From contig JAFZRZ010000038.1 of NCBI GenBank assembly GCA_017619635.1, positions 1 through 64,000 of the forward strand: DNA of 64,000 bases, given 5' to 3'. Each line of letters starts with the position of its first letter. Positions within the stretch are counted from its first letter, which is position 1. A program made the position numbers and the translations under genes. Source of the DNA: Lachnospiraceae bacterium (GTDB lineage: Bacteria > Bacillota > Clostridia > Lachnospirales > Lachnospiraceae). The notes below the pieces were generated by a model, which had not been told where the DNA came from, did not search any database, and saw only the letters and a program-made list of their open reading frames with translations. This document shows positions 15,159 to 36,272 of this stretch, one piece after another.

Positions 15159-15611
15159 ATGAAGATACGGATTGAGCTTGATGACAGCTTACAGGAGCAG
15201 GAGATCATAATAAGAGCTCCCGAGTTGACACCGGAGATATCACAACTGCAGAAACTGATAGGCGATGCCACAAAGGCAACAAAGTCGCTTGAGTTTTATA
15301 AAGGTGATACGAGAGTGTATATCTCGACAGAAGAGGTTCTGTTTTTTGAGACTGATGAAAAGGGGATCAGTGCTCACACAGGTAATGACCGCTACGAGAT
15401 AAGATACAAGCTCTACGAACTTGAGCAGATGCTTCCGTCATACTTTATGAGAGTATCCAAGTCGACAATACTCAATATAAGAGAGATCTTCACGATCGAC
15501 AGAAGCTTATATGCATCAAGCGTTGTCTCATTCAGAGACACGCACAAGCAGGTATTCGTATCGAGACACTATTACAAGACTTTGACAGAGAGATTGGAAA
15601 GCAAAGCATAA
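15159..15611 (+). CDS. LytTR-type DNA-binding regulator
   Basis: Protein of 150 aa with no receiver domain. The N-terminal 45 residues are charged (MKIRIELDDSLQEQEIIIR); the C-terminal 100 form a LytTR domain with IYISTEEVLFFET-like strand, YELEQMLPSYFMRVSKSTILN and VSRHYYKTLTERL. Single-domain LytTR proteins with this N-terminal extension are common in Clostridia next to small membrane proteins. The LiaF-like gene follows after 46 nt and is probably co-transcribed. It likely controls its own operon and envelope genes. Confidence 0.88.
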   Translation: MKIRIELDDSLQEQEIIIRAPELTPEISQLQKLIGDATKATKSLEFYKGDTRVYISTEEVLFFETDEKGISAHTGNDRYEIRYKLYELEQMLPSYFMRVSKSTILNIREIFTIDRSLYASSVVSFRDTHKQVFVSRHYYKTLTERLESKA

Positions 15612-15657
15612 TGGTGCATGGGTCTGTAAAAGGAGGAAATCCAAGGAGGTAAGTTAT

Positions 15658-16368
15658 ATGAAACAGGGAAAGAATATTGCATGGGGAATAATCTTTATAG
15701 TAGCTGCAGTGATGGTACTGTTAAACGGATTTGACATAGCCATCGGTTTTCCTATCTGGAAGATACTGTTATCTATATTTTTGGTTATGTGGCTTAAGCA
15801 CGGTCTGGAACAGAAGGACTGGGCGAGCCTTGTATTCCCGATAGTATTTCTGGTATGCACATGGATAGATGATCTTGGCATATCAAAAGTTACGATCTTC
15901 TTCGCAGCATTTCTTGCAGTCATCGGTCTTTCGTTTTTGTCGGGGGGCAAGAACAAGATGTTTAAGAAGGATGACTTGGAACGCATAGAAGACAAGAGCA
16001 TGGGCTCAACCGATGACGGAACAGTAAACTCAAACGATAATGTATTCTCATTTTCAACATCATTCGGTTCAGGTGTTAAGTACGTAAAGGCCGATAACTT
16101 CTCAGAAGGAAGGGTAAACTGCTCATTCGGTGAGGCAAAGGTTTATTTTGACGATGCACAGATACATGACGGAGAAGCATACATATATGTGAATAACAGC
16201 TTTGGTACAATAAATCTTTATGTGCCCAAGGAGTGGTATGTGACAAATGAGGCCGGTATAATGTTTGGCGGAGTTGAAGAGAGAAACAGAAGTATAACAA
16301 CCGGAAATCCCAAGTTAAGGATAGTCGGAAACGTTAAATTCGGATGTGTTGCAGTTACATACATCTAA
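15658..16368 (+). CDS. LiaF-like membrane protein
   Basis: Protein of 236 aa. Four closely spaced membrane helices (about residues 5-105) are followed by a C-terminal beta-rich domain with repeats of the type CSFGEAKVYF and NNSFGTINLYVPKEW, typical of the LiaF / 'cell wall-active antibiotics response' C-terminal domain. A perfect AAGGAGGT precedes ATG 15658. In Bacillus, LiaF inhibits the LiaRS system; here the partner is a LytTR regulator instead, so the signalling route must differ. Confidence 0.85.
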   Translation: MKQGKNIAWGIIFIVAAVMVLLNGFDIAIGFPIWKILLSIFLVMWLKHGLEQKDWASLVFPIVFLVCTWIDDLGISKVTIFFAAFLAVIGLSFLSGGKNKMFKKDDLERIEDKSMGSTDDGTVNSNDNVFSFSTSFGSGVKYVKADNFSEGRVNCSFGEAKVYFDDAQIHDGEAYIYVNNSFGTINLYVPKEWYVTNEAGIMFGGVEERNRSITTGNPKLRIVGNVKFGCVAVTYI

Positions 16369-16386
16369 GCAATATGTAAATTCTGA

Positions 16387-16427
16387 GGTCGCACCTTTAA
16401 AGGGGGAGGGTGCGGCCTTTTTTCTTT
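16387..16427 (+). terminator. Intrinsic terminator after the LiaF-like gene
   Basis: GGTCGCACC (16387-16395) pairs with GGTGCGGCC (16409-16417, one G-T pair), followed by TTTTTTCTTTT. Confidence 0.9.
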
Positions 16428-16466: not shown

Positions 16467-16495
16467 TTGTTAAGCGCAATATATGCTGATAAAAT
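16467..16495 (+). promoter_or_regulatory. Promoter of the adaptor/ABC export operon
   Basis: TTGTTA (16467-16472), 17-nt spacer, TAAAAT (16490-16495) with an extended -10 TG element (TGATAAAAT). The predicted start near 16502 is about 32 nt before ATG 16534. It drives the run of five genes to the terminator at 24281. Confidence 0.65.
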
Positions 16496-16533: not shown

Positions 16534-17529
16534 ATGAATTACAGAAGATATACAATATTTATTCTCATATGTGCAATTCTTTTGACCGGATGCGGTAATA
16601 AAGCATACAAGTCGATCACTGATATATCAAGAATAATGTATCAGAAAAAAGAGTATCAGATCACTCCTGTGCAGACAGGAGATCTTGAGCCTATCCTTAA
16701 ACTCAAGCTTGCCAGACAGGAAACTGAAAAGATCAGTTACAGTGTTGATGAGAGTGATCTTGAGATGGAAGAGATCCTAGTCAGTATCGGTGATCATGTC
16801 AGTGCAGGTCAGATGCTCATCTCATTTAAATCCGAAGAGATAAAAAAGAATATCGAAAAATACAGTGGCGAAGTGACGAAAAAACAGCTCCTCTTGGATC
16901 ATTACAAGCGTATGTACAATGTCGATTATACCGACAGGGATGAAAAGTATGCCGTTATCCTCGAAGAGCTTGAAGACGATGTCGAACTGGCAAAGCTTTA
17001 TCTTGCCGAAGAGCAGGCAAGATTCGACAAATGTCAGATCAAAGCAGAACGTGACGGTATCATATCATTTATAAGTAAGAACATCGTGAGCGGTATAGCT
17101 GAACCGGGAGAGACGCTTGTCACCCAGATCTGCGGTCAGACACGGTACACTGCCAATACAAAGGACAGTTTTGCCTTTAATATCGGTGATGTGTATGAGG
17201 CTCAGACTGTGGAAGCAAGCTATGACATGGAAGTTGTTGATGTGATCGATGAGAGCGATTTCAGCAGGACCGTAGTGTTTGTGCCCCTCGATGATACTGT
17301 TGAGATCACCGAGGATATAACCATGGACATAAAGAAGGGAAAACTGTCGAACTGCATTTATGTTCCCAAGCTCTGCGTGTATTCAAAGAATGATAAAAAG
17401 TTCGTATATATTGTCAAAGAAGACGGTTTTTTGGAAGGTCGTTTTGTTGAGACAGGTGAAGAGATCGATGACTGGGTTGTCATCAAGAGCGGACTGGACG
17501 GAACGGAAGAGGTAGCATATACAGAATGA
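16534..17529 (+). CDS. MacA/HlyD-like adaptor lipoprotein
   Basis: Protein of 331 aa. Lipoprotein signal MNYRRYTIFILICAILLTGCG (lipobox LTGC, Cys near 20). It then shows the membrane-fusion-protein order: half lipoyl motif (ILVSIGDHVSAGQMLISF), helical hairpin (about 105-180), second lipoyl half (IKAERDGIISFISKNIVSGI), beta-barrel and a MacA-type C-terminus (VYIVKEDGFLEGRFVETGEEI). ATG 16534 is chosen because it gives the signal peptide and has GGGGA upstream. It overlaps the next adaptor gene by 4 nt. It probably links the permease at 19813 to the cell-wall space. Confidence 0.85.
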   Translation: MNYRRYTIFILICAILLTGCGNKAYKSITDISRIMYQKKEYQITPVQTGDLEPILKLKLARQETEKISYSVDESDLEMEEILVSIGDHVSAGQMLISFKSEEIKKNIEKYSGEVTKKQLLLDHYKRMYNVDYTDRDEKYAVILEELEDDVELAKLYLAEEQARFDKCQIKAERDGIISFISKNIVSGIAEPGETLVTQICGQTRYTANTKDSFAFNIGDVYEAQTVEASYDMEVVDVIDESDFSRTVVFVPLDDTVEITEDITMDIKKGKLSNCIYVPKLCVYSKNDKKFVYIVKEDGFLEGRFVETGEEIDDWVVIKSGLDGTEEVAYTE

Positions 17530-19805
17530 GAAGATTTGGCAGAATTATCAGGACAACTTCATTGATACTTACCCTTTCCTTACTTCTTGGTGGCTGTGCA
17601 CAGGAGAGAGATATCCCTGTATTGGAAGAACCGGTCACAGAGAGGGAACTGTTCAGACCTGTTACACGTATGGATGTCGGTGAGTTAAAGGTAAGCATAG
17701 GAAATGTTACTCCCATGCCATATTGTCATTATTTCGAAAGACAGACTGTTATCGATGAGATCAACTGTACTGTCGGACAGTATGTCAATAAGGGTGATGT
17801 GCTTGTGACAGCAGATACCGAGTCCATGAAGGATGAGCTTGTTGAAATGCAGGCTTCACTTAAACTGCTTATTGACGAGCATACGGCAAAAGAGCCTTTG
17901 CATGACCTGAACATAAAGATACTCAGTTCGAAACGTCAGGAGTGTCTGTACAGATATGATGAGGAAGGCGCATCACAGTATACCACCGAGATAAAAAAGA
18001 CAGAAGAGGACCATACCTATGATGAGGAACTCTATGCCTACATGGTGGAGTACTATCAGTCAGAGATAGCCAAGATTGAAAAGAGCATAAATGAAAAGAC
18101 TTTAAAGGCCAAAGTATCGGGATATGTTACCTATATAAAGGATACTTCCAAGGGAAGTACTGCAAAGAATGAGGAAGCGATAGTAATAGTCAATGATTTT
18201 GACGACCTTTATATTGAAGTGCCGGATACCACAACAGCAACCAATACATACGGTAAGTATGAAGTAAAGTATGCTGTGATCAAAGGGCAGGAAGTACCGA
18301 TCGAAGAGATAGAGTACTCTTCAAGGGAACAGGTATATGCAAAATCTCAGGGTAGTTACCCCTGCGTAAGATATAAAACTCTGACTCCTCAGGAACTTAA
18401 GATCGGGGAGACTGTGATACTGTGCTTTGTAAGAAGAGACAGACAGGATGTTCTCACTGTCGGATATGATTCATCAAATTCGGATGAGAACGGCATCTAT
18501 GTTTATGTCAAAAAAGAGGATGGCAGTCTTGAAAAAAGATATATAGAGGTCGGTATAACCGATGATTATTATTATGAGGTATTAAGCGGTCTTGAAGAGG
18601 GAGAGGAAGTCTTATACACGCAGGAATCCGTAGCTCCGGTATCATATGAGGAATATACGGTTGTAACAGGAACACAGAGGACTTCGGTTCTGGGTTCCAA
18701 TCTTAAGAAAGCAGAGATAGTGAACACGGCGTATTTCACTCCCTGTGACGGAAAGATCGAGAGTCTGAATGTTGATCCCGGACAGGAGGTCCATAAGGGA
18801 GATGTTCTTGCTGTCATTGACAGCGGAAGCGGAGAGGCTGCGATCCAGGAGATCGAAAATGAGATAAAGCATCTTAACATGGATTATGAGAAATATGTTA
18901 AGGATGCTGATAAAAACATAAAGACAATGACTGTACAGGGTCTTCAGCTCCTTACTGTCATCGAACAGGGAAATTTTTACGGTACTTTGGGTGAGCATGA
19001 AGAGGATGCAATCAACTGTCAGAAGGATGTGTTTGATCATCAGGTAAGTATCGCAAAGATCGAAAAAGAAGTAAGAAGAATCGAATATGAGGATTCTCTT
19101 GCGAGATTAAACAGGCAGATAACAAAGATCAAAAAGAACAATAACGGAAGCGGAAAGATAAGTGTCATTGCAAAAGAAGACGGTGTCGTATCCTCACTGT
19201 ATGTAAAGGAAGGCGATATCGTTAAGCGTGGCGGAGATAAATATCTTTTGTTCTCATGCACCAGATCCGTGGAAGGGATAGGAAGCCTGTCAGTAGGAAA
19301 GGGAGGCGAGATACCGCCTTTGGGATGTTCTATAGAGATATCCATAAATGAATCTGATGATAAATATACAGGTAAAGCAATAAGCTGTATAGTCGGAGGA
19401 AAAGCTTATGCATTTACCGAGGATGATAAGATAAGACTCTCAGTATGTGAAAGTGCGGGAGTAAGTAACGGCAAGTCTGTTATATTTGAATTTGATGACA
19501 AGGAATTCTTTGACAAGGTGAAGATAAAAGACTGCGAACCAAAGATCCAGGTCCTTTATGCAGAAAATCTTGTTATAGTTCCGGGAAGTGTCGTTTATAA
19601 AGAGGAAAATGTACTGACTTCCAAGATGAGATTCTTTGTCTGGAAGATGATGGACGGAAAACCTGTTAAGCAATATGTAGTTAAGGGAAGCACATACGGT
19701 ATCGGTGATGAGGCCAGTGTTGTTATACTTCGCGGCTTAGAGCCCGGTGATGTGCTTGCAAAAGAATCAAGCGCGGTTAAGACAGCTACGGATGAGGAGC
19801 AGTAA
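17526..19805 (+). CDS. Tandem (double) MacA/HlyD-like adaptor lipoprotein
   Basis: Protein of 759 aa, about twice the usual adaptor length. Lipoprotein signal ends in LLLGGCAQ (Cys near 25). Two complete adaptor modules follow. Module A has CTVGQYVNKGDVLVTADTES, LKAKVSGYVTYIKD and a C-terminal YVKKEDGSLEKRYIEVGI. Module B has DGKIESLNVDPGQEVHKGDV, a long coiled-coil hairpin (about 435-535), IAKEDGVVSSLYVKEGDIV and a C-terminal MRFFVWKMMDGKPVKQYVV. It is coupled to the first adaptor (ATGA overlap) and precedes the permease. With the upstream gene the operon encodes three adaptor modules. Confidence 0.85.
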   Translation: MRRFGRIIRTTSLILTLSLLLGGCAQERDIPVLEEPVTERELFRPVTRMDVGELKVSIGNVTPMPYCHYFERQTVIDEINCTVGQYVNKGDVLVTADTESMKDELVEMQASLKLLIDEHTAKEPLHDLNIKILSSKRQECLYRYDEEGASQYTTEIKKTEEDHTYDEELYAYMVEYYQSEIAKIEKSINEKTLKAKVSGYVTYIKDTSKGSTAKNEEAIVIVNDFDDLYIEVPDTTTATNTYGKYEVKYAVIKGQEVPIEEIEYSSREQVYAKSQGSYPCVRYKTLTPQELKIGETVILCFVRRDRQDVLTVGYDSSNSDENGIYVYVKKEDGSLEKRYIEVGITDDYYYEVLSGLEEGEEVLYTQESVAPVSYEEYTVVTGTQRTSVLGSNLKKAEIVNTAYFTPCDGKIESLNVDPGQEVHKGDVLAVIDSGSGEAAIQEIENEIKHLNMDYEKYVKDADKNIKTMTVQGLQLLTVIEQGNFYGTLGEHEEDAINCQKDVFDHQVSIAKIEKEVRRIEYEDSLARLNRQITKIKKNNNGSGKISVIAKEDGVVSSLYVKEGDIVKRGGDKYLLFSCTRSVEGIGSLSVGKGGEIPPLGCSIEISINESDDKYTGKAISCIVGGKAYAFTEDDKIRLSVCESAGVSNGKSVIFEFDDKEFFDKVKIKDCEPKIQVLYAENLVIVPGSVVYKEENVLTSKMRFFVWKMMDGKPVKQYVVKGSTYGIGDEASVVILRGLEPGDVLAKESSAVKTATDEEQ

Positions 19806-19812
19806 ACAATAG

Positions 19813-22659
19813 ATGTTAAATTTTATCAGATATAAGATCACAAATAAAAAGCTATTGAACTGCAGCCTTTTGGTAGGTGTTATAATGCTGGCCGGTTTCT
19901 TATGCGTATACCCGATGTTCAGAGAAGGCAGTTTAAACCGTCTGATACAGACAATGTTTGTTGAACAGGCAAAAGAGACCAGGGAATATCCCTGCACCAT
20001 TTACTATACCGGAGGTGTGCCTTTCGACCGGTTTGAATCTGTGGATAAGATATGCGAGGAGATGGATGGTATAGAAAAGAAGTGGGCAAGCGGTCTTACC
20101 TGCCCCCAGCTTGATACCCAGCGTGTTCTCTATGTCAAAACAGGTAATGCTGACACTACTTTTGGTTCAAAATCGAGAGTGGTATCAATAGGAACTATCC
20201 CCGGTCTGTACGATCATGCTGATCTTTTGTACGGTGTTAAGGCCGAGGAAGCAGCAAACAGTGATAACGATATGGTTAAGGAGGCTCTGGCAAACGGAGC
20301 TTATCCGTGCGTTATATCGCAGTCTGTTATGGACAGATACGGACTTGTGGTCGGTGAGACACTCTCATTTAAGTTTAAGATGTACAGCGGAGCCGATGTA
20401 TCGAGTTTTGTCATAACAGGTATCATAGAGGAGAAGGAGGAAGACAGATTCTACTGGCATAACCGCCTGGAGAGTTATAAAGACCTTCTTATTCTGCCTT
20501 ATGAAGTTTATGACAGCATAATAAGAAAATTTGAGATCAATGAGACATATTATGATCTGGCCGTTATGTATGATTACACATATATAGACAGTGTCAACGC
20601 GGTCTCATACAGAGGATTTTTGAAATGGCTCAATAAAGAGGACAAGGATGTGAAGAACAACTTCAGCAATATCCTTGGCTCGTATCTTATACAGGAAAAG
20701 AGTATAAGCCTGATACTCTTTGCATTTGAGCTGCCGATCGTGGCTTTGATGCTTCTGTTCTTATACATGATCTCAAGCAGGATCCTTGAGATGGAGACAA
20801 CAGAGATAGCTATGTTAAAGAGCCGTGGTGTCTCAAGATTAAAGATCATCGGTGTTTATGTTTTACAGTCATCCATCATCGCAGGACTTGGCTGTCTGAT
20901 CGGACTTCCTGTCGGATATGGCATGTGTAAGATGGCTGTTTCAACAAATGCGTTTCTTTCATTTACGATAAAGGATGTCAGCATATATGAGCCGGTATTA
21001 AATATGATCCTTTTTGTGATCCTTGCATTTTTGCTTGCTGTGCTCTTTATGACACTGCCTGTTATCGGTCTGTCAAAGCTTACCATAACAGAAAGAAAAG
21101 GTCTCAGGATATCATCTTCAGGCACACCTTTGTGGCAGAAGTATTTCTTTGACATCGCACTTTTGATCGTATCGGGCTACCTTTTATATAACTATTACAA
21201 GCAGAAAGATGCCATGGCGGTTCAGATCATATCGGGAGGAGCAGTCGATCCTGTCATCTTCCTTGATTCGAGTCTGTTTATATTAGCGTGCGGACTTCTG
21301 TTCCTAAGACTGACGGGATACCTGGTAAGACTGATTTATCACATTGGAAAAAAGAGATGGAAACCTGCTGGGTACGTTGCATTTTTGCAGATCATAAGAA
21401 ATGCCAAAAGACAGGGATTTATCACAGTATTCCTTGTAATGACCATAGCCATGGGTGTGTTCAATGCAAACCTGGCGCGAACCGTAAATGAGAATGTTGA
21501 GAAAAGAACAAACTATAACATAGGTACAGACTATGTGGTTCAGGAAAGATGGGTACTGACCACCATAAAGCTTCAAAGCGGTGAGTATACATGGAAATAC
21601 AAAGAGCCCGATTATGAGAGGTTTAAACTTTCAGAGGATTACGGTGTTGAGAGCTTCACAAAAGTGATGATAGATGAGAGCACCGATATAAAGGTAGGAG
21701 ACAAGCTTGAAGTCGGAAACATGCTGATGGCTATAAGCACCAAGGAGTTTGGTGAGACAGCCGTACTGGAAGGAAATGTAAATGATAAGCACTGGTTTTA
21801 TTATCTGAATGCACTGGGTAAGAATCCAAAGGGAGTTTTGATATCTTCAAACCTGGCTAAAAAGTATGATCTTCATGAGGGAGACAGCATACATTACCTG
21901 CGTTACAGCCCGCTCGATCCCAAGAAAGCCGATCTTGACACATCTGCTGTGATATGCGGTATAGTTGATGCCTTTCCCGGATATGAGAGTACTGTTTACG
22001 AGACACAATCGGACGGAAGCATTGAGCCAAGAGAGAGATATCTGATAGTCGCTAACCTGCAGACTGTAATAAACAACAGAAGGATCACTCCTTACCAGGT
22101 ATGGATGAGACTGTCTGAAGATGCAGACACCGAGAAGATAGAAGAAGGATTAAGAGCCAACAAAATCGATATCAAGAGTATCAGTGACAGGAAAAAGACT
22201 ATACAGAATCAGAGAGATTCGTCAATGATACAGATAACAAACGGTATGTTCTCTATAGGATTCATCATATCGCTTTTGATCTGTGCTGCCGGATTTTTGA
22301 TCTACTGGATACTGACCATAAAAGAGAGAGAGATGCTTTACGGAATTTATCGTGCCATGGGTATGAGCATGAGAGAGATCGTGACCATGCTTGTGACAGA
22401 GCAGATATTCAGTTCTTTACTGGCTGCTTTATCGGGATTTGCAGTTGGCGGTATATCGACACTGTTATTTACAAAGCTGATATCCATCGTATATCTGCCC
22501 AGAAAACATAATCAGCCGATAGAGATATTCATAAAAGCACAGGACAGCATAAAGATGGTAATCATCATAGGAGCTGCATTTGCGGTTTGCTTCTATATCA
22601 TAGGCAGGATACTTAAGGACATGAATATAACCAGTGCACTGAAGATGGGAGAGGATTGA
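19813..22659 (+). CDS. Two-lobed FtsX/MacB-type ABC permease
   Basis: Protein of 948 aa. N-terminal helix (about 17-37), external domain of about 240 residues, helices near 290-320, 345-375 and 395-425, a linker pair of helices (about 445-510), a helix near 540, a second external domain, then three C-terminal helices (about 815-840, 860-890, 912-940). This is the 10-helix, double FtsX-domain architecture, in which one polypeptide can replace a MacB dimer. It follows the adaptor genes and precedes two ATPase genes. The substrate is unknown; lipids, peptides or glycolipids are possible. Confidence 0.87.
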   Translation: MLNFIRYKITNKKLLNCSLLVGVIMLAGFLCVYPMFREGSLNRLIQTMFVEQAKETREYPCTIYYTGGVPFDRFESVDKICEEMDGIEKKWASGLTCPQLDTQRVLYVKTGNADTTFGSKSRVVSIGTIPGLYDHADLLYGVKAEEAANSDNDMVKEALANGAYPCVISQSVMDRYGLVVGETLSFKFKMYSGADVSSFVITGIIEEKEEDRFYWHNRLESYKDLLILPYEVYDSIIRKFEINETYYDLAVMYDYTYIDSVNAVSYRGFLKWLNKEDKDVKNNFSNILGSYLIQEKSISLILFAFELPIVALMLLFLYMISSRILEMETTEIAMLKSRGVSRLKIIGVYVLQSSIIAGLGCLIGLPVGYGMCKMAVSTNAFLSFTIKDVSIYEPVLNMILFVILAFLLAVLFMTLPVIGLSKLTITERKGLRISSSGTPLWQKYFFDIALLIVSGYLLYNYYKQKDAMAVQIISGGAVDPVIFLDSSLFILACGLLFLRLTGYLVRLIYHIGKKRWKPAGYVAFLQIIRNAKRQGFITVFLVMTIAMGVFNANLARTVNENVEKRTNYNIGTDYVVQERWVLTTIKLQSGEYTWKYKEPDYERFKLSEDYGVESFTKVMIDESTDIKVGDKLEVGNMLMAISTKEFGETAVLEGNVNDKHWFYYLNALGKNPKGVLISSNLAKKYDLHEGDSIHYLRYSPLDPKKADLDTSAVICGIVDAFPGYESTVYETQSDGSIEPRERYLIVANLQTVINNRRITPYQVWMRLSEDADTEKIEEGLRANKIDIKSISDRKKTIQNQRDSSMIQITNGMFSIGFIISLLICAAGFLIYWILTIKEREMLYGIYRAMGMSMREIVTMLVTEQIFSSLLAALSGFAVGGISTLLFTKLISIVYLPRKHNQPIEIFIKAQDSIKMVIIIGAAFAVCFYIIGRILKDMNITSALKMGED

Positions 22660-22660
22660 T

Positions 22661-23362
22661 ATGTCGGAATATATGATAGAGACAAAAAATATCCATAAGA
22701 GCTTTCCCATAGGCAACAAAGAGACACTGGAAGTCTTAAAGGGTATAGATATTGTTGTACCGAAAGGGAAACTGACCATTTTAAAAGGCCGTTCCGGTTC
22801 GGGTAAGACAACACTTTTAAATATTCTTAGCATGCTTGACGACGCGACTGAAGGAACATTTTTGATCGATGATGAAGATGTGTCAAAAATGGACAGCTCC
22901 CAAAAAGAGACCTTCAGACGTTACAACATAGGATTTGTTTTCCAGTCTGTTGCTCTTGTTCCGATAATGTCCGCATACGAGAATGTTGATTTCGGGCTTA
23001 AGCTTGCAGAATATGATGGGGACAAGGATGCGAGGATCAAGGAAGTACTCGGTATCGTTGGACTCGGAGGCCGTATGAATCATATGCCATCACAGCTTTC
23101 GGGCGGTGAGAGGCAGAGAGTTGCCATAGCAAGAGCCGTTGCGCATAAGCCGAAGATCATATTTGCGGATGAACCTACGGGAGCACTTGATACGGCAGCA
23201 GGTATAGCGGTAATGAAGCTGTTCAGGGAGCTCATAGACCGTGAGGGTATCACGATAGTTATGACTACACATGACCCGAACCTTATGCCTTTGGGAGATG
23301 TGGTCTACAGCATGGAAGACGGTATGTGTCATGATGCAACGATAGTTGAATCAAACAATTGA
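22661..23362 (+). CDS. ABC ATPase of LolD/MacB type (first of two)
   Basis: Protein of 233 aa. Walker A GRSGSGKTT near residues 45-53, Q-loop FVFQSVALVP, signature LSGGERQRVAIARA near 145, Walker B IIFADEPTGALD, H-loop TTHDPN. The ATG is 1 nt after the permease stop with GAGGA upstream. It belongs to the LolD-like branch that energises FtsX-type permeases. A second, clearly different ATPase gene follows after 10 nt; the two probably form a heterodimer under the asymmetric permease. Confidence 0.92.
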   Translation: MSEYMIETKNIHKSFPIGNKETLEVLKGIDIVVPKGKLTILKGRSGSGKTTLLNILSMLDDATEGTFLIDDEDVSKMDSSQKETFRRYNIGFVFQSVALVPIMSAYENVDFGLKLAEYDGDKDARIKEVLGIVGLGGRMNHMPSQLSGGERQRVAIARAVAHKPKIIFADEPTGALDTAAGIAVMKLFRELIDREGITIVMTTHDPNLMPLGDVVYSMEDGMCHDATIVESNN

Positions 23363-23372
23363 TGAGGTATAT

Positions 23373-24281
23373 ATGTCACAGGAGAGTAATACGACGCCGG
23401 ATAACATTTTGGTATGTGACGGTCTCGTAAAGATCTACAAAACTGAAGATATAGAAGTAATGGCACTGCAGGGTCTTGATCTGGAGATAGGCAGAGGTGA
23501 GCTTGTTGCCGTTATCGGAAAGAGCGGAAGCGGAAAGTCTACTCTGTTAAATATGATAGGCGGCCTTGAGAAACCCACTGCCGGCAGGATATATGTTGAC
23601 GGTAACGATCTGTTTGCAATGGAAGAATCTGAACTTGTCAGGTACAGGCAGACCACTGTGGGATTTGTATGGCAAAACAGCGGCCAGAATCTTTTCCCTT
23701 ACATGACGGCCGTGCAGAATGTTGAAGCCCCGATGTTCTTTATGAAGGGCAACAAGAAAGAACGCCGCCAGAAAGCCATGAATCTGCTTAAACTTACGGG
23801 AATTGATCATAAAGCCGATTCATATCCACCGCAGATGTCAGGGGGTGAGCAGCAGAGAGTAGCGATAGCAGTTGCTCTTGCCTGTGATCCGAAAGTCCTT
23901 TTGGCTGACGAACCTACAGGAGCCGTGGATTCAAAGACATCCAACATGATACAGGATCTGTTCAGAAAGCTAAACGAGGAACTCGGCATTACGATCATCA
24001 TAGTAACGCATGATATAAGCCTTGCAAATAAGGTATCGAGAGTTATCATGGTTTCCGACGGTAAGATAAGTACCGAGAAGATCATGAAAGATGAGTATAA
24101 GAAAAAGCTGGATGAGCTTTCCGCAGAAAATCTTGCACAGGTTGAGTCTCATGAGGAATACTCTGTCATGGATAAGGCCCACAGAGTACAGCTGAGTGAG
24201 GAATTACTTGAAATGGCAGGGATAGATTCCAACAAGGTCAAAGTAGAAGTAAAAGACGGTAAGATAATAATATCCAAATAA
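23373..24281 (+). CDS. ABC ATPase with C-terminal AbrB-like extension (second of two)
   Basis: Protein of 302 aa. LolD-like ATPase with Walker A GKSGSGKST, Q-loop FVWQNSGQNLFPYM, signature MSGGEQQRVAIAVA, Walker B VLLADEPTGAVD and H-loop VTHDIS. About 70 residues extend past the ATPase core; the last 33 (about 270-302: HRVQLSEELLEMAGID, then NKVKVEVKDGKIIISK) look like an AbrB/MazE swapped-hairpin domain. ATG 23373 has GATGAGG at good spacing; the upstream TTG lies inside the first ATPase gene. It is the last gene of the export operon. Confidence 0.9.
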   Translation: MSQESNTTPDNILVCDGLVKIYKTEDIEVMALQGLDLEIGRGELVAVIGKSGSGKSTLLNMIGGLEKPTAGRIYVDGNDLFAMEESELVRYRQTTVGFVWQNSGQNLFPYMTAVQNVEAPMFFMKGNKKERRQKAMNLLKLTGIDHKADSYPPQMSGGEQQRVAIAVALACDPKVLLADEPTGAVDSKTSNMIQDLFRKLNEELGITIIIVTHDISLANKVSRVIMVSDGKISTEKIMKDEYKKKLDELSAENLAQVESHEEYSVMDKAHRVQLSEELLEMAGIDSNKVKVEVKDGKIIISK

Positions 24282-24305
24282 AAAATCCCCTTACGGGGAT
24301 TTTTT
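24281..24305. terminator. Bidirectional terminator between convergent genes
   Basis: AAAAATCCCC (24281-24290) pairs with GGGGATTTTT (24295-24304) around a TTAC loop. T-runs on both strands serve the export operon and the leftward GlsB-like gene, whose stop codon lies in the stem. Confidence 0.92.
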
Positions 24306-24540
24306 ATTTCATCAGTTTTCGTCCGATAAAGATCAGAAGACATGCACCGACAACAGAAGTGATTATGCTTCCGATTATGTTAGATGCCTGGAAGCCTATG
24401 ATCCCGAATAAAATACCGCCTACAAAACCACCGACGATACCGAGGATGATATTCCTGATCCATCCGCCCTGGCTCTTCATGATCACTCCGGCGATACAAC
24501 CTGATATCGCACCAACGATAAGACCTATGATAATACCCAT
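24304..24540 (-). CDS. GlsB/YeaQ/YmgE family membrane protein
   Basis: Protein of 78 aa with three short Gly-rich membrane helices (GLIVGAISGCIAG, NIILGIVGGFVGG, IITSVVGACLLIFIG), the pattern of the transglycosylase-associated/GlsB stress family. AAAGGAG lies upstream. GlsB-type proteins are linked to general or envelope stress in Gram-positives; the biochemical role is unknown. It has its own promoter and terminator. Confidence 0.92.
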   Translation of the reverse strand: MGIIIGLIVGAISGCIAGVIMKSQGGWIRNIILGIVGGFVGGILFGIIGFQASNIIGSIITSVVGACLLIFIGRKLMK

Positions 24541-30750: not shown

Positions 30751-31509
30751 ATGGAAGATATCAAGTACAGTGTTTTGATGATAGATGATGATGAGGTCAT
30801 AGCTCAGTCTACGGCAGAGTACTTCAACATGTTTGATGTGAAGACGGCATATGTTACAGGTTATGATGAGGCTGTCTCATTCCTTGAAGTTAACACAGTA
30901 TCTCTTCTTTTGCTTGATATCAATCTCGGTGAAAGATCGGGCTTTGATCTTTGCAAGAAGGTAAGAGAAAACTATGACATGCCAATCCTGTTTATCAGTG
31001 CAAGGACCAGTGATGATGATGTACTGATCGCTCTTAACATAGGCGGAGATGATTACATTAAAAAGCCTTATACATTAAGTATCCTGCTAGCAAAGGTAAA
31101 GACCATTCTTTCCAGATACGAAAAGGCAAAGGAGATGGCACGTGCATCAAATAAGGATGATTCCGGTGAACAGGAATCAGGTATAACAGAGGGCGATATC
31201 ATAAAGCTTACGGATAAGATATGCCTTGATACAGGGACCCATAAGCTTAAAAGTGAGAATGAACAGATAAGCTTAAAGGCAATGGAGTACAAGCTGCTTT
31301 TCTATCTTATCCTAAACTGCGGAAGAGTAGTTACCAAGGATGAGCTCTTAAAGAATGTATGGGATGATGAATTCATCGGAGAAGGCACCCTTGCGGTCCA
31401 TATCAGGCATTTAAGAGAAAAGATAGAGGATGATCCCAAAGAGCCAAAGGTCATAAAGACTATCTGGGGAGTCGGATATATAATAGAAAGCTATGAAAAA
31501 CTACAGTAG
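30751..31509 (+). CDS. OmpR-type response regulator of the second FtsX-type ABC locus
   Basis: Protein of 252 aa. Receiver with MIDDDE and phospho-acceptor Asp near 55 (LLLLDINLGERSG), Ser in LFISARTSDD and Lys in YIKKPYT. An acidic linker of about 30 residues leads to a winged-helix domain (AVHIRHLREKIEDD). It overlaps the kinase gene by 17 nt. The tandem 11-bp repeats at 32808-32829, just in front of the ABC genes, are a likely binding site for this protein. Confidence 0.93.
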   Translation: MEDIKYSVLMIDDDEVIAQSTAEYFNMFDVKTAYVTGYDEAVSFLEVNTVSLLLLDINLGERSGFDLCKKVRENYDMPILFISARTSDDDVLIALNIGGDDYIKKPYTLSILLAKVKTILSRYEKAKEMARASNKDDSGEQESGITEGDIIKLTDKICLDTGTHKLKSENEQISLKAMEYKLLFYLILNCGRVVTKDELLKNVWDDEFIGEGTLAVHIRHLREKIEDDPKEPKVIKTIWGVGYIIESYEKLQ

Positions 31510-32809
31510 GTTTGTCATCGTACTCTTTGTCTTATACTTTACCGCTGTGATCATAGTAGCGGTAGTAACAGGTAAAAAGGGTTACGAGACAAACTCAAGA
31601 GATGAAGATGTATTAAAACTGAATGACATTGCAAGAGATGTCGAAGATAACTGGTATGATCTTAACGCACTCGACAGTACCGATTACGGCGTTGTCTTTA
31701 CGGTAATAGATTTAAATAATGAAATTCTCTATGAAACGAATCTGTCGGATGAAAGAATCGAAACCGTCTCTGTTGAGAATGCGATAAAGAACCGCTATCC
31801 GTATGCATGCCTTACCGTTAATGAAAAATCGGTCGGATACATTATCATGGCAGATGACGGACTCGGATTTTTTAAACTTATCAGGTTAAGACTTATCATC
31901 GGTCTTTTGATCCTGGGCCTGTGTCTGTTTTTTCTTACGTTTTTATACGGAAGATATATTGATAAGAGCATAATCACTCCTTTTAAAAACATGAAGAGCT
32001 TTGCGGGCAAGATAGCAGAAGGCAATCTTGACGAACCCCTCATGATGGATAAGGGAAACATGTTCGGGGCATTCAGCGAGAGCTTCGATATAATGAGGGA
32101 GGAACTTTCCGAATCAAGAAAAAGAGAGATAGCCCTTCAAAAGAAGGAAAGAGAGCTCGTGGCATCATTAAGCCATGACTTAAAGACTCCCATAACAGGG
32201 ATAAAACTTACTACCGAGCTTTTAAAGGCAAAGCTTGAAGCGGCAGATGAAAAGAACGAAAACACAGGGGATATTAAAGAGAAGCTTGACAACATATATA
32301 AAAAAGCAGACCAGATAGATGTTTTAGTCAGCGACCTTTTCTCATCAGTACTCGATGATCTTGGTGAATTCAAGGTAAGCTTGAGTGATGAAGAAACAAA
32401 GGTGCTTTCAGACATCGTTAAAAAGTATGACGATAAAAACCTTGTCGTATCATCACCTATACCGGATGTTCTTATACGCATAGATTTAAGGCGAATGAGC
32501 CAGGTTATTGGAAACATCATTTCTAATTCATATAAGTATGCAGGGACGAGGATCGATATCGATTACAGGATAGAAGAAGAATTTTTGCAGATGCGCATAC
32601 ACGATCACGGACCGGGAGTTCCCGAAGATGAACTGAGTTTAATCGCTAACAAGTTCTATCGCGGCAGGGACTGGGAAAAGAGTTCAAAAGACGGAAGCGG
32701 ACTTGGACTGTATATAGCAAAGATGTTAATGGAAAAGATGAACGGAGAGATGCTTCCCGAGAGTAATGGGGACGGACTTATCATCACACTGCTCATTCCT
32801 CTCTGTTAA
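31493..32809 (+). CDS. HAMP-type sensor histidine kinase
   Basis: Protein of 438 aa. Helix near 5-25, external domain of about 100 residues, second helix near 128-150, HAMP region, HisKA with LVASLSHDLKTPITG (phospho-His near 228), HATPase N-box IGNIISNSYKYAG, G1 DHGPGVP and G2 GSGLGLYIA. It overlaps the regulator gene and is followed, without a terminator, by the ABC transporter genes. The external domain is probably the sensor; the ligand is unknown. Confidence 0.92.
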   Translation: MKNYSRFVIVLFVLYFTAVIIVAVVTGKKGYETNSRDEDVLKLNDIARDVEDNWYDLNALDSTDYGVVFTVIDLNNEILYETNLSDERIETVSVENAIKNRYPYACLTVNEKSVGYIIMADDGLGFFKLIRLRLIIGLLILGLCLFFLTFLYGRYIDKSIITPFKNMKSFAGKIAEGNLDEPLMMDKGNMFGAFSESFDIMREELSESRKREIALQKKERELVASLSHDLKTPITGIKLTTELLKAKLEAADEKNENTGDIKEKLDNIYKKADQIDVLVSDLFSSVLDDLGEFKVSLSDEETKVLSDIVKKYDDKNLVVSSPIPDVLIRIDLRRMSQVIGNIISNSYKYAGTRIDIDYRIEEEFLQMRIHDHGPGVPEDELSLIANKFYRGRDWEKSSKDGSGLGLYIAKMLMEKMNGEMLPESNGDGLIITLLIPLC

Positions 32810-32829
32810 GAATTTGATAAGAATTTAAT
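32808..32829 (+). promoter_or_regulatory. Tandem 11-bp direct repeat, probable response-regulator site
   Basis: AAGAATTTGAT (32808-32818) is followed immediately by AAGAATTTAAT (32819-32829), one mismatch in eleven. Head-to-tail repeats at one helical turn are the usual binding pattern of OmpR/PhoB-type regulators. The site begins on the last bases of the kinase gene and lies upstream of a possible -10 (TATACT, 32865-32870) that lacks a good -35. Confidence 0.55.
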
Positions 32830-32853
32830 AATACTTCGACAAGGAAGTATCAA

Positions 32854-32920
32854 AAGAAACCATATATACTGATTTCATAAGATGACAGATTATGAAAGGA
32901 AGTAGTATATATGGTTTCTT
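32854..32920 (+). repeat. 17-bp inverted repeat enclosing the ABC gene start
   Basis: The arms 32854-32870 (AAGAAACCATATATACT) and 32904-32920 (AGTATATATGGTTTCTT) are perfectly complementary. A second inverted repeat inside, TTTCATAA (32873-32880) and TTATGAAA (32890-32897), stacks below it. The ATG (32911-32913) lies in the outer stem and the ribosome site GGAAG (32898-32902) in the internal bulge. A smaller hairpin ATACTTC/GAAGTAT (32831-32850) precedes it. Confidence 0.8.
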
Positions 32921-33672
32921 CTATTTTGCAAACAGAAAAGCTCTGTAAATCATTTTCAAACGGCGGAATGCAGCAGCATGTGATAAAGAATTTAGATATG
33001 GAGATAAGAAAGGGAGACTTCACGGTCATCATGGGAGCATCGGGTTCCGGAAAGTCAACTCTTCTCTATGCTCTTTCGGGAATGGATAAGCCTACGATGG
33101 GAAAGGTTAAGTTTGACGGGAGAGAGATCCAAAATCTTTCCAATGACGAGCTGGCAGTCTTTAGAAGAGGCAACTGCGGATTTGTTTTCCAGAGTGTATA
33201 TCTTTTAGAGAATCAGACGGTTTTAGATAACGTCTTAACAGGCGCTCTTATAGTTCAGAAAAATTCACCTGAGCTTGTTAGCAAAGCCAAGGACCTTTTA
33301 AGAAAGGTAGGACTTAGCGATGAGGATATGAAGAAATATCCAAACCAGTTATCGGGAGGAGAGGCTCAGCGAGTAGGTATAGTAAGAGCGATAATAAACG
33401 ATCCCACAATTCTTTTTGCGGATGAGCCTACAGGACAGCTAAATTCGGCTTCAAGCAAGGATGTACTTGACATATTTTCTGATATCCATAAAAACGGCCA
33501 GTCGATAGTGATGGTAACGCATGATCTTAAGACAGCGCTAAGAGCAACGAGAGTTATATTCTTACGTGACGGAGGAATAGTCGGGGAGTATGAGATGCCC
33601 GTCTACGGAACTGATGATATAAAGCAGCGAAGGAGCGATCTTCAGAAGTTTTTAGACGAGATGGGATGGTAG
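32911..33672 (+). CDS. ABC ATPase of LolD/BceA type
   Basis: Protein of 253 aa. Walker A GASGSGKST near 48-56, Q-loop FVFQSVYLLENQ, signature LSGGEAQRVGIVRA, Walker B ILFADEPTGQLN and H-loop VTHDLK. AAAGGAAG precedes the ATG, but both lie in a long inverted repeat (32854-32920). It pairs with the FtsX-type permease at 33754. Its place after a two-component system recalls Bce-type peptide-resistance modules, though the kinase here has an external domain, unlike BceS. Confidence 0.92.
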   Translation: MVSSILQTEKLCKSFSNGGMQQHVIKNLDMEIRKGDFTVIMGASGSGKSTLLYALSGMDKPTMGKVKFDGREIQNLSNDELAVFRRGNCGFVFQSVYLLENQTVLDNVLTGALIVQKNSPELVSKAKDLLRKVGLSDEDMKKYPNQLSGGEAQRVGIVRAIINDPTILFADEPTGQLNSASSKDVLDIFSDIHKNGQSIVMVTHDLKTALRATRVIFLRDGGIVGEYEMPVYGTDDIKQRRSDLQKFLDEMGW

Positions 33673-33676
33673 AAGC

Positions 33677-33733
33677 GCAGAAAAAGATTTCTGCAATTAG
33701 CCTCAGTCACGAAGACGAAAAATAAGCTGAGGC
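33677..33733 (+). repeat. Two hairpins between ATPase and permease genes
   Basis: GCAGAAA/TTTCTGC (33677-33683, 33688-33694, 4-nt loop) and GCCTCAG/CTGAGGC (33700-33706, 33727-33733) fill the 81-nt gap. There is no T-run, so these are more likely RNA-processing or stability elements than terminators. Confidence 0.6.
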
Positions 33734-33753
33734 AGGGTTTAGAGGTAAATGTA

Positions 33754-36261
33754 ATGAAGATATTCAGATTATCATTATTCAATATAAAGAAGAACAAAAA
33801 AGAAGTGATCGCGATCATTTTCCTAACATTCATCACTGTCTTTCTCATGGGAGGAGTGGTCACAGGTGCGACAAAGATGAACACCGCATTTGATGAAAGC
33901 TTTGATCGTACCGGATGTGTCACCAACATGATCGTAATAACCAGGGAAAAATACAGGGACGAGTACTTAGGTTTACTCACGGACGATCCCAATGTAAGCG
34001 ATGTAAAGAAAAACAGGATGTTAGACGGAATGACAGGCACGGGAGTTGTGCGAGATAAAAACGGCGAAACGATCGCCTACAACATGTATCTTTGTACCGA
34101 AAAGACAGAAAGGCAGATCGAGGATTTTGTTAAGACTGAGTCGATGAGTGAATCCGAGATAGCAGCACTGAAACATCCCATATGGCTTCCGACACCGTTT
34201 AGCGTAACGCTTAAATATAATATAGGAGATACGTTTACGCTTGTGAGCGCAGGAAGGGATTATCCTTTTACGGTTGCAGGGTTTTATGAGGCAGGCCTCC
34301 TTTCAAGTTCGGGACACGGATACAAGCTTATCGTTTCCGATGAGGACTATGAACTTTTATCCTACAACTATAATGAGAGAGTATGTCTGTCATTTAATGC
34401 CAGTGATAAATGGGATCGGTCACAGTACTATGAGAAATGCACCGAGGCAACCGGAGAGAATATCAGTTCATACTGCTTTGCATATTACAAGGAAGGTGAA
34501 AAACTGATCGAGATCAGCTTTTTAAGTATCTTTATCGTCTTAAGCTCGTTTCTTTCAATAGTTACTCTTGTTGCGGCAACCTTTCTGATAAGAAGAAAGA
34601 TAACCAATGATATCGAGGATCAGATGCAGCAGATCGGGGTACTGGAAGCACTCGGATACAGATCAGGCGAGATATCATTATCATATCTGTATGAATATGT
34701 GTTTTCCGGAGGGAGCGGTTCGCTTCTCGGCTGTATCGCATCCATACTGTTCACTCCTGTAATGAACAGCATAGTAGGGACCATGATGGGCAGAAGATAT
34801 CACGGGATGACGACAGTATTTGGCGATATCGTTATCGCTATTATCGTTACGATGATAATAATGGGATTTGCTCTTTTAAAGGCAGGAGCGGTTAAGAAGT
34901 TCCCGCCTGTCATCGCTTTCAGAAAAGGGATACAGACACATCATTTCGGCAAAAATATCCTTCCGCTTGAAAAGCACAGCGGAAATATAAATATAAAACT
35001 TGCACTAAAGGATTTCTTTATCAATTACAGATCAGGGATAGGGACCGGGATATGTATCATCATAGCCGGAGCGGCACTGGTCTTTGCGGTACAAATGCTT
35101 GATTTCTTTAAGACGGGAGTGAACGGCCTTGTATCCTTAATGGGATGTGATATTGTTGAGACTCAGATCGAGCTTATGAACGGCGTGGATGCTAAAGATT
35201 TCGCGGATGAAATAAGTCAGCTTGATGGTGTCAGAAAGGTTTTGTTAAATTACGGATATCCCTACATAAGAGTAAAAAACTCCGCTGAGGACGGAACGGC
35301 GATCGTATTTGAAGACTTTAACGATTCCGAAAACATCTTTACAACAGAAGGGAGATATCCCGAACATGACAATGAGATCATGATCTCATTAAAGAGGGCT
35401 AAGCTGGAAGGATACAGACTCGGTGACAGTATCACGGTTTATAATGACTCCATCGAAAAGACCTATGTGATATGCGGGATCGTCAATTCGATGATGAACA
35501 GCGGATACAATCTGTATCTGACAAAAGAAGGTTATCTAAGGCTTAACCCGAATGCGCGTCCGGGCAGTGTGGAAGTATACCTTGATAAGGATTATGACAG
35601 AAAGAAATTCGAGGATACCTTAGGGGAAATGTACGGAAGCAGCGCTAGGGATTCACAGGCAGTATCTGAAAGCGACGGTGATCTTGAATCAAGGATACGC
35701 AAAGTGGCAGATGAGAAGATGGCCATCCTCATATCCGAGTACGGTGTGACTGATGTTGATTACGCCATATATATAGGCGATGAGGTAATAACGGGTGACA
35801 GCAGGAAATTTGTTATCAAGAATATCTCATCCTTACAGGATCTTACAAAGTCGCAGATGGAACCCATAGCGACTCAGATCAAGGGCTATTCCGTAGGAGC
35901 TTTGATATTCATAGCGATCGTAGTCGGTGTTATCCTCTATATACTTACCGTTTCAAATATAAGAAGACAGAGACAGGCTTTAGGGATAATGAAGAGCATG
36001 GGATACTCATCAAAGGATCTGATGATCCAGATGTCTGTAAAGTTCATGCCGATCACCGTGACCGCAGCTATTTTTGCCTCGATCCTTGCGATCTTTCTTA
36101 CAAAGGCTTTCTGGTTATACGGACTGGGAATTGACATGGGCTACAGCATCTTTTTGATCATAGTCGTTGATATCCTTCTTATCATCTACTGCTTCTTTAT
36201 CACTTACATCAGTTCCAGAAGGATAAAGAAAATCTCAGTCACGGAGCTTATGACGGAATAG
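33754..36261 (+). CDS. Two-lobed FtsX-type ABC permease
   Basis: Protein of 835 aa. N-terminal helix (about 18-38), external domain of about 210 residues, helices near 255-280, 310-335 and 355-380, a central helix near 425-445, a second external domain (about 450-700) and three C-terminal helices (about 710-730, 765-790, 795-825). This double FtsX arrangement suits a single permease with an ATPase dimer. It follows the ATPase at 32911 and precedes a beta-lactamase-fold hydrolase. The substrate is unknown; antimicrobial peptide or lipoprotein-type cargo is typical of the class. Confidence 0.88.
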   Translation: MKIFRLSLFNIKKNKKEVIAIIFLTFITVFLMGGVVTGATKMNTAFDESFDRTGCVTNMIVITREKYRDEYLGLLTDDPNVSDVKKNRMLDGMTGTGVVRDKNGETIAYNMYLCTEKTERQIEDFVKTESMSESEIAALKHPIWLPTPFSVTLKYNIGDTFTLVSAGRDYPFTVAGFYEAGLLSSSGHGYKLIVSDEDYELLSYNYNERVCLSFNASDKWDRSQYYEKCTEATGENISSYCFAYYKEGEKLIEISFLSIFIVLSSFLSIVTLVAATFLIRRKITNDIEDQMQQIGVLEALGYRSGEISLSYLYEYVFSGGSGSLLGCIASILFTPVMNSIVGTMMGRRYHGMTTVFGDIVIAIIVTMIIMGFALLKAGAVKKFPPVIAFRKGIQTHHFGKNILPLEKHSGNINIKLALKDFFINYRSGIGTGICIIIAGAALVFAVQMLDFFKTGVNGLVSLMGCDIVETQIELMNGVDAKDFADEISQLDGVRKVLLNYGYPYIRVKNSAEDGTAIVFEDFNDSENIFTTEGRYPEHDNEIMISLKRAKLEGYRLGDSITVYNDSIEKTYVICGIVNSMMNSGYNLYLTKEGYLRLNPNARPGSVEVYLDKDYDRKKFEDTLGEMYGSSARDSQAVSESDGDLESRIRKVADEKMAILISEYGVTDVDYAIYIGDEVITGDSRKFVIKNISSLQDLTKSQMEPIATQIKGYSVGALIFIAIVVGVILYILTVSNIRRQRQALGIMKSMGYSSKDLMIQMSVKFMPITVTAAIFASILAIFLTKAFWLYGLGIDMGYSIFLIIVVDILLIIYCFFITYISSRRIKKISVTELMTE

Positions 36262-36272
36262 GAGAGAGAAAA

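What the first reader, a model, noticed from the sequence alone, without database searches (positions are those of the whole stretch)
16534..22659. Export operon with three adaptor modules, two of them fused in one lipoprotein
A single-module adaptor lipoprotein and a 759-aa tandem adaptor are both membrane-anchored by lipid and precede one 948-aa two-lobed permease. Known MacA-type adaptors form hexamers. Here 1 + 2 modules, doubled, would give six: a hetero-oligomeric adaptor ring on a pseudo-dimeric permease. A Gram-positive tunnel through the cell wall would be an unusual machine.
Basis: partly seen in the sequence, partly recalled or inferred. Interest (0 to 1): 0.58.

Follow-up and report, generated by a model that had tools for sequence, protein, structure and literature searches.

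The report
Three-part adaptor set on ABC exporter
Gut bacteria of one family carry an export pump whose collar is built from three different but related adaptor proteins, two of them often joined into one, where related pumps use copies of a single adaptor; this offers a natural case of a simple ring becoming a complex one.

Summary
The window carries a five-gene transcription unit: a lipoprotein adaptor (331 aa), a tandem adaptor lipoprotein (759 aa), a two-lobed permease (948 aa) and two ABC ATPases that lie outside the stated coordinates. Profiles, AlphaFold2 and structure searches show that both halves of the tandem are complete MacA/HlyD-type modules.

In 57 of 57 uncut relatives (60 examined) the operon holds exactly one module of each of three types: as single + tandem, or as three separate genes. 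Each type forms its own clade, so the adaptor was triplicated once, before these operons diverged; types 2 and 3 were later fused about three times. Most relatives outside this group have one adaptor on the same kind of permease. Hence a hetero-oligomeric adaptor is the best reading, and a ring of 2 x 3 = 6 is the natural but unproven stoichiometry.

Not supported: a tunnel through the cell wall. Hairpins are only 30-45 residues per helix, unequal, and type 1 has lost its hairpin in one subclade. Prior art exists (TriA/TriB; fused DSY0927; Spr0693 nanotube), so this is a new variant of a known kind. The substrate is unknown.

The parts
16385..16419 (+). terminator-like hairpin separating the upstream LiaF-like gene from the operon
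   Evidence: 14-pair stem, 7 G-C, T tail; consensus match only
16467..16495 (+). promoter-like site (TTGTTA-17-TAAAAT, TG before the second hexamer)
   Evidence: 9 of 12 consensus match; overall number of such sites is near the shuffled expectation, so weak
16534..17529 (+). adaptor 1 (type 1 module), lipoprotein, 331 aa
   Evidence: TIGR01730 E 1.4e-15, below its cut-off; AF2 pLDDT 85.2; MacA 5nik_D Z 15.8; lipobox Cys20 invariant in 40 of 40 rows
17526..18647 (+). tandem adaptor, first module (type 2), residues 1-374, lipobox Cys24
   Evidence: Cys24 invariant in 36 of 36 rows
18648..19805 (+). tandem adaptor, second module (type 3), residues 375-759, no signal peptide of its own
19813..22659 (+). 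two-lobed permease, 948 aa: two FtsX domains, MacB_PCD-type extracellular domains
   Evidence: hydropathy gives 9 clear and 1 weak (my reading) membrane segments and two ~250-residue extracellular domains; lobe-lobe profile match E 1.1e-7
22661..23362 (+). ABC ATPase 1, 233 aa
   Evidence: ABC_tran E 2e-32; Walker A, signature, Walker B, H-loop intact
23373..24281 (+). ABC ATPase 2, 302 aa (an in-frame TTG at 23346 is possible)
   Evidence: ABC_tran E 7.7e-36; all motifs intact
24276..24309 (.). bidirectional terminator-like hairpin at the operon's end
   Evidence: 15-pair stem on both strands

Best explanation
It is a MacAB-like (type VII) ABC exporter of Clostridia in which the single adaptor has become three. 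An ancestral operon had one adaptor gene with a two-lobed permease and two ATPases. The adaptor was triplicated once; copies 1, 2 and 3 specialised and have been kept together since, and copies 2 and 3 were later fused (about three times), giving the tandem seen here. Mechanism: the permease chain supplies both halves of the MacB-type dimer and the two distinct ATPases sit beneath it. ATP binding and hydrolysis move the two extracellular domains against each other, and a lipid-anchored collar of types 1, 2 and 3 (most simply two of each, 2 x (1 + tandem) = six modules) sits on these domains and guides a substrate away from the membrane. Shown: gene content, module anatomy, clades, co-retention, fusion. 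Inferred: that the three types assemble in one ring, its size of six, direction of transport. Unknown: the substrate.
For: All 57 uncut loci with this permease clade have exactly one module each of types 1, 2 and 3 (60 examined, 3 cut at contig ends). Counted from the permease alone, this holds for 34 of 34 uncut places in 33 of 250 family genomes (35 places, one cut). Types 1, 2, 3 are each one clade (supports 86, 99*, 99* in 97 rows; 98*, 99*, 99* in 93 rows with four further loci from three other families). The tandem is a fusion and not an internal duplication: holding all tandem halves together is rejected, p-AU 5e-56. Three-adaptor permeases form one clade (100*) among one-adaptor ones, and fused versus separate needs 3 changes on that tree. 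Only 2-3 fusions were seen, never 1-2. Full-length profile homology among the types, E 1e-40 to 1e-49. Type 1 has lost its hairpin in five loci while types 2 and 3 there keep theirs, i.e. the types are not equivalent. Hexamers are known for MacA and Spr0693 (6:2:2 model; PMC5768738).
Against: No complex could be predicted or measured. The module profiles used were trained on most of the same loci; loci outside the training set are L089, L103, L115, L116, L118 and L140. The number three is not a law of the permease: 36 of 53 class loci have one adaptor, two have two, and one family has several in another arrangement. Unequal hairpins do not suit an even six-hairpin tube. The genome held for another species of the window's genus lacks the system (G213).
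Confidence: 0.62

Rival explanations
1. Hetero-oligomer of another size: one adaptor 1 and one tandem per permease (three modules, an open or asymmetric collar), without a closed ring of six.
For: Three module types per single two-lobed permease chain fit 1:1:1 just as well. Type 1 without a hairpin and unequal hairpins suit an irregular collar.
Against: Solved adaptors of this fold, MacA and Spr0693, form hexamers, and the one-adaptor relatives of this very permease would need a homo-oligomer.
Confidence: 0.2
2. Alternative homo-oligomers: each adaptor forms its own ring and they swap on the permease, for different substrates or conditions.
For: Paralogues with different hairpin lengths; each type is able to fold alone.
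Against: Types 2 and 3 are covalently joined in 37 of the 57 uncut loci (table, near-copies included), genes 1 and 2 overlap by 4 bases in the window, and all three are co-retained in 57 of 57.
Confidence: 0.1
3. Only types 2 and 3 form the ring on the permease; type 1 is an accessory subunit (regulator, substrate receiver or anchor).
For: Type 1 is the one that lost the hairpin in one clade (5 of 48 loci) and is never fused.
Against: Type 1 keeps lipoyl, barrel and membrane-proximal domains, and is the type whose profile is closest to the solo adaptors (pos1-solo E 1.5e-45, against 7.3e-43 and 7.7e-35).
Confidence: 0.15

Closest known systems
Spr0693-0694-0695 of Streptococcus pneumoniae (MacAB-like, Gram-positive; PDB 5xu0/5xu1)
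   Same: Adaptor with hairpin, lipoyl and barrel domains; MacB-type permease; adaptor 1 aligns to 5xu0 (Z 13.2); hexameric nanotube on a dimeric transporter, modelled 6:2:2 (passages)
   Different: One adaptor gene, one-lobed permease and one ATPase, each used twice
MacAB-TolC of Escherichia coli (5nik)
   Same: Same adaptor fold and FtsX/MacB_PCD permease domains
   Different: Homohexameric MacA, ATPase fused to a one-lobed permease, docks on TolC; here no outer-membrane partner was looked for or expected in a Gram-positive family
TriABC-OpmH of Pseudomonas aeruginosa
   Same: Two non-identical adaptors, both required, 36% identical, proposed trimer of dimers or hetero-hexamer (PMC4338810 and PMC13328181, passages); a 695-aa adaptor chain named for two fused proteins is in the PDB (6vej_P; that it is an engineered TriA-TriB fusion is recalled)
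   Different: RND pump, two adaptor types and not three, Gram-negative
DSY0927 of Desulfitobacterium hafniense
   Same: Natural fusion of two different adaptors beside an ABC transporter in a Gram-positive lineage (PMC4338810 and PMC4446572, passages)
   Different: Its N-terminal half is described as lacking a coiled coil and MF-type; no third adaptor is mentioned in the passages; sequence not compared here
BesA of Borrelia burgdorferi
   Same: Adaptor without hairpin (abstract in listing), like type 1 in L060, L062, L069, L070, L072
   Different: Sole adaptor of an RND pump

Membership tests
HlyD/MacA-type adaptor (membrane fusion protein / PAP) | lipoyl, helical hairpin, beta-barrel and membrane-proximal domains in each module | tested here: met
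   for adaptor 1 and both halves of the tandem
HlyD/MacA-type adaptor (membrane fusion protein / PAP) | N-terminal membrane anchor (helix or lipid) | tested here: met
   lipobox cysteine invariant in alignments A2 (36 rows) and A3 (40 rows); the type 3 half has none of its own
MacB/FtsX-type (type VII) ABC transporter | FtsX permease domain with MacB-like extracellular domain plus ABC ATPase | tested here: met
   PF02687 E 8.6e-19 with two stretches, PF12704 E 1.2e-9, two ABC_tran proteins; motifs intact
MacAB tripartite pump | homohexameric adaptor of a single kind on a homodimeric permease | tested here: not met
   three adaptor types and a two-lobed permease with two different ATPases; oligomeric state itself not testable
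MacAB tripartite pump | outer-membrane TolC partner | not tested
   no TolC search was made; Gram-positive family
Hetero-oligomeric adaptor pump (TriABC type) | more than one adaptor type encoded with one transporter and retained together | tested here: met
   57 of 57 uncut loci
Hetero-oligomeric adaptor pump (TriABC type) | all adaptor types required and in one complex | not testable with these tools
   needs experiment or complex prediction

The most novel reading that the evidence does not exclude
A natural adaptor crown made of three distinct subunit types in fixed order (1-2-3-1-2-3) on a pseudo-dimeric permease, evolved by one triplication of a homomeric adaptor, with types 2 and 3 repeatedly fused, and with a second family (f177) that reached a three-adaptor set on its own: an evolvable model for how a homomeric ring becomes an obligate heteromeric one.
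Probability: 0.42. Interest if true: 0.68.

Novelty: new variant of a known kind. Interest (0 to 1): 0.52.

Why it matters
Adaptor stoichiometry in ABC exporters is inferred mostly from homo-oligomers. Here evolution has tagged three positions with three sequences, and has even joined two of them, so the order and number of adaptors can be read by ordinary genetics or mass spectrometry. One-adaptor, three-adaptor and fused versions coexist in related bacteria, which lets the origin of a heteromeric ring be followed step by step. It also bears on why Gram-positive bacteria keep adaptors at all.

Tried and rejected
Internal duplication as the source of the tandem: rejected, because the two halves belong to two clades with separate-gene members, p-AU 5e-56. 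The second half as a non-adaptor coiled-coil protein: rejected. Defence-system link: no PADLOC match for adaptor 1, tandem or permease. LytTR and LiaF-like genes upstream as members of the unit: a terminator-like hairpin lies between, and they recur only in the three closest loci by my reading, so left out. DUF6034 lipoproteins as a constant partner: found in 12 of 130 loci scanned, plus one weak match, L067, so at most a subclade feature. A wall-spanning tunnel: not supported, see report. Equal hairpin length for all three types: not met. Sequence search of the PDB with the permease finds only partial relatives (LolC/LolF, PsdB, 5xu1_M, MacB; best E 1e-5), so no full-length solved relative by sequence. 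Structural comparison of the tandem listed no Spr0693 chain among the 50 rows shown, which excludes nothing. Literature on three-adaptor sets: searches showed no report of it in the listed rows; most subscription papers are not held.

Rows dropped: 97 of the 168 collected modules were put in the first tree; nine near-copies or cut loci were left out of the permease tree; five class hits with the permease at a contig start (G963, G670, G753, G903, G674) were not fetched; L043, L048 and L103 are cut.

Full report
WHAT IS THERE. Gene calls give adaptor 1 at 16534-17529, the tandem adaptor at 17526-19805 (4-base overlap), the permease at 19813-22659, ATPase 1 at 22661-23362 and ATPase 2 at about 23373-24281, all on the + strand. 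Terminator-like hairpins lie just upstream (16385-16419) and at the end (24276-24309), with a weak promoter-like site at 16467-16495. The window lies in a 3.0-Mb genome (G000) whose nearest named relatives are Lachnospiraceae MAGs.

MODULES. Pfam finds three Biotin_lipoyl_2 stretches and two HlyD_D23 stretches in the tandem, and the second half alone keeps both matches. AF2 with 36 related tandems gives two complete modules, hairpin helices 99-142/146-189 and 437-480/492-536. AF2 with 40 relatives of adaptor 1 gives the same fold with shorter helices, 101-130/137-166. The first half of the tandem aligns best to CusB (Z 13.2, 255 residues, rmsd 7.1), the second to BesA and MacA (Z 12.2); adaptor 1 aligns to AcrA, TMexC and MacA (Z 16.7, 16.2, 15.8; rmsd about 8). 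Foldseek agrees. The permease has two FtsX domains, two extracellular domains of about 250 residues, and nine clear membrane segments plus, by my reading, a weak tenth; its two lobes match each other as profiles at E 1.1e-7. Both ATPases have intact motifs.

CO-OCCURRENCE. A scan of genome contigs with the permease gave 21 loci. All 19 whose upstream DNA is held have single adaptor, tandem and permease in this order, down to 36% permease identity, and two start inside the permease. A tandem search in 250 family genomes exposed operons with three separate adaptor genes. To avoid choosing by adaptor I then searched with 28 permeases (alignment A1): 33 of 250 family genomes, 35 places. Of these, 34 are uncut and all have three modules: 18 as 1 + 2 and 16 as 1 + 1 + 1; the 35th (L103) is cut and shows types 2 and 3. 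In L089 the type 2 gene is broken into two overlapping frames. Over all three-adaptor loci examined, 57 of 57 uncut carry types 1, 2 and 3 once each, and three are cut (near-copies included).

CONTROLS. One-lobed MacB-like permeases picked up in the same genomes stand with one adaptor: nine loci, L088, L090, L092, L093, L095-L099. Two-lobed relatives outside the group mostly have one adaptor. In the phylum sample (13 of 398 genomes with a hit), nine out-of-class loci have one and one is cut. In the class sample (57 of 391 genomes) I fetched 53 loci: 36 have one adaptor (L125 with a split frame, L136 cut at a contig end; L130 and L144 have a further MacA-like adaptor fragment at the edge of the stretch), 4 have types 1, 2 and 3 as separate genes (L115, L116, L118, L140, in three other families), 2 have two adaptors (L129, L143), 10 belong to family f177 with several adaptors, and 1 is cut (L119).

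HISTORY. In a tree of 97 modules, types 1, 2 and 3 are one clade each (86, 99*, 99*) with one-adaptor relatives outside. Adding the four loci from other families and the f177 adaptors keeps this (98*, 99*, 99*). So one triplication came first. The permease tree puts all three-adaptor operons in one clade (100*), with separate genes at its base; fused versus separate needs 3 changes, at least 2 forced by starred branches. The halves of the tandem do not form one clade (p-AU 5e-56): they are a fusion of genes 2 and 3. No 1-2 fusion was seen.

NON-EQUIVALENCE. The stretch between the two lipoyl halves, a proxy for hairpin length, has medians of 69, 95 and 90 residues for types 1, 2 and 3, and 60-65 in ten one-adaptor relatives; type 1 is the shortest in 34 of 48 loci. 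In L060, L062, L069, L070 and L072 it is 15 residues, so the hairpin of type 1 is gone while types 2 and 3 keep 87-94. BesA is a known hairpin-less adaptor (PMC3807786, listing). Type 3 as a separate gene has a lipobox-like motif in 13 of 15.

MECHANISM. By analogy to MacA/MacB and Spr0693 (passages of PMC5768738) the adaptor sits on the extracellular domains of the permease. A two-lobed permease is the covalent equivalent of the MacB dimer, so six adaptor modules per permease would be two of each type. This is inference. At 1.5 A rise per residue (textbook value) the hairpins reach about 45 A (type 1) and 66 A (types 2, 3), similar to the helical barrel given for Spr0693 (31 A in diameter and 56 long by the passage seen). 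That reaches into the inner wall space at most, not through a wall. Substrate and direction are unknown. The LiaF-like and LytTR genes upstream hint at envelope stress but are outside the unit.

NOVELTY. Two adaptor types in one pump are known (TriA/TriB) and a natural fused adaptor beside a Gram-positive ABC transporter has been noted (DSY0927) (PMC4338810, PMC4446572, PMC13328181, passages). I found no report of a three-type set in the searches. In family f177 three or four adaptors occur in another layout: L163 and L166 have one before the permease and two after the ATPases; L164 adds a second permease; L151, L153 and L154 have four adaptors and two permeases. These fall outside the clades of types 1, 2 and 3, though the backbone of that tree is weakly supported, so independent origin is likely but not shown.

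Noticed in passing
L151, L153, L154, L156, L163, L164, L166 (family f177): A second multi-adaptor arrangement: adaptor, permease, ATPase 1, ATPase 2, adaptor, adaptor, in some followed by a second two-lobed permease and a fourth adaptor; apparently independent of the triplication studied here.
   Followed up: partly
L060, L062, L069, L070, L072: Type 1 adaptor that has lost its whole helical hairpin (15 residues between the lipoyl halves), while the two partner adaptors keep theirs.
   Followed up: partly
L047, L049-L052, L054-L057, L080-L082: One to four DUF6034 (PF19499) lipoproteins of about 470 aa next to the operon in 12 loci; possible substrate-handling partners.
   Followed up: partly
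window 15159-16368: LytTR DNA-binding protein followed by a LiaF-like membrane protein just upstream of the operon, before a terminator-like hairpin.
   Followed up: partly
window 30751-38273: Two-component system (30751-32809), ABC ATPase, an 835-aa two-FtsX permease without adaptor, and a beta-lactamase-like serine hydrolase (the last name is from reading the translation); possibly a BceAB-like sensing and resistance unit.
   Followed up: no
L089:5236-6341: Middle adaptor gene broken into two overlapping frames (frameshift or assembly error).
   Followed up: no
G213 (same genus as the window): No permease match at E 1e-30 in the other genome of the genus, so the operon is patchily distributed.
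   Followed up: no
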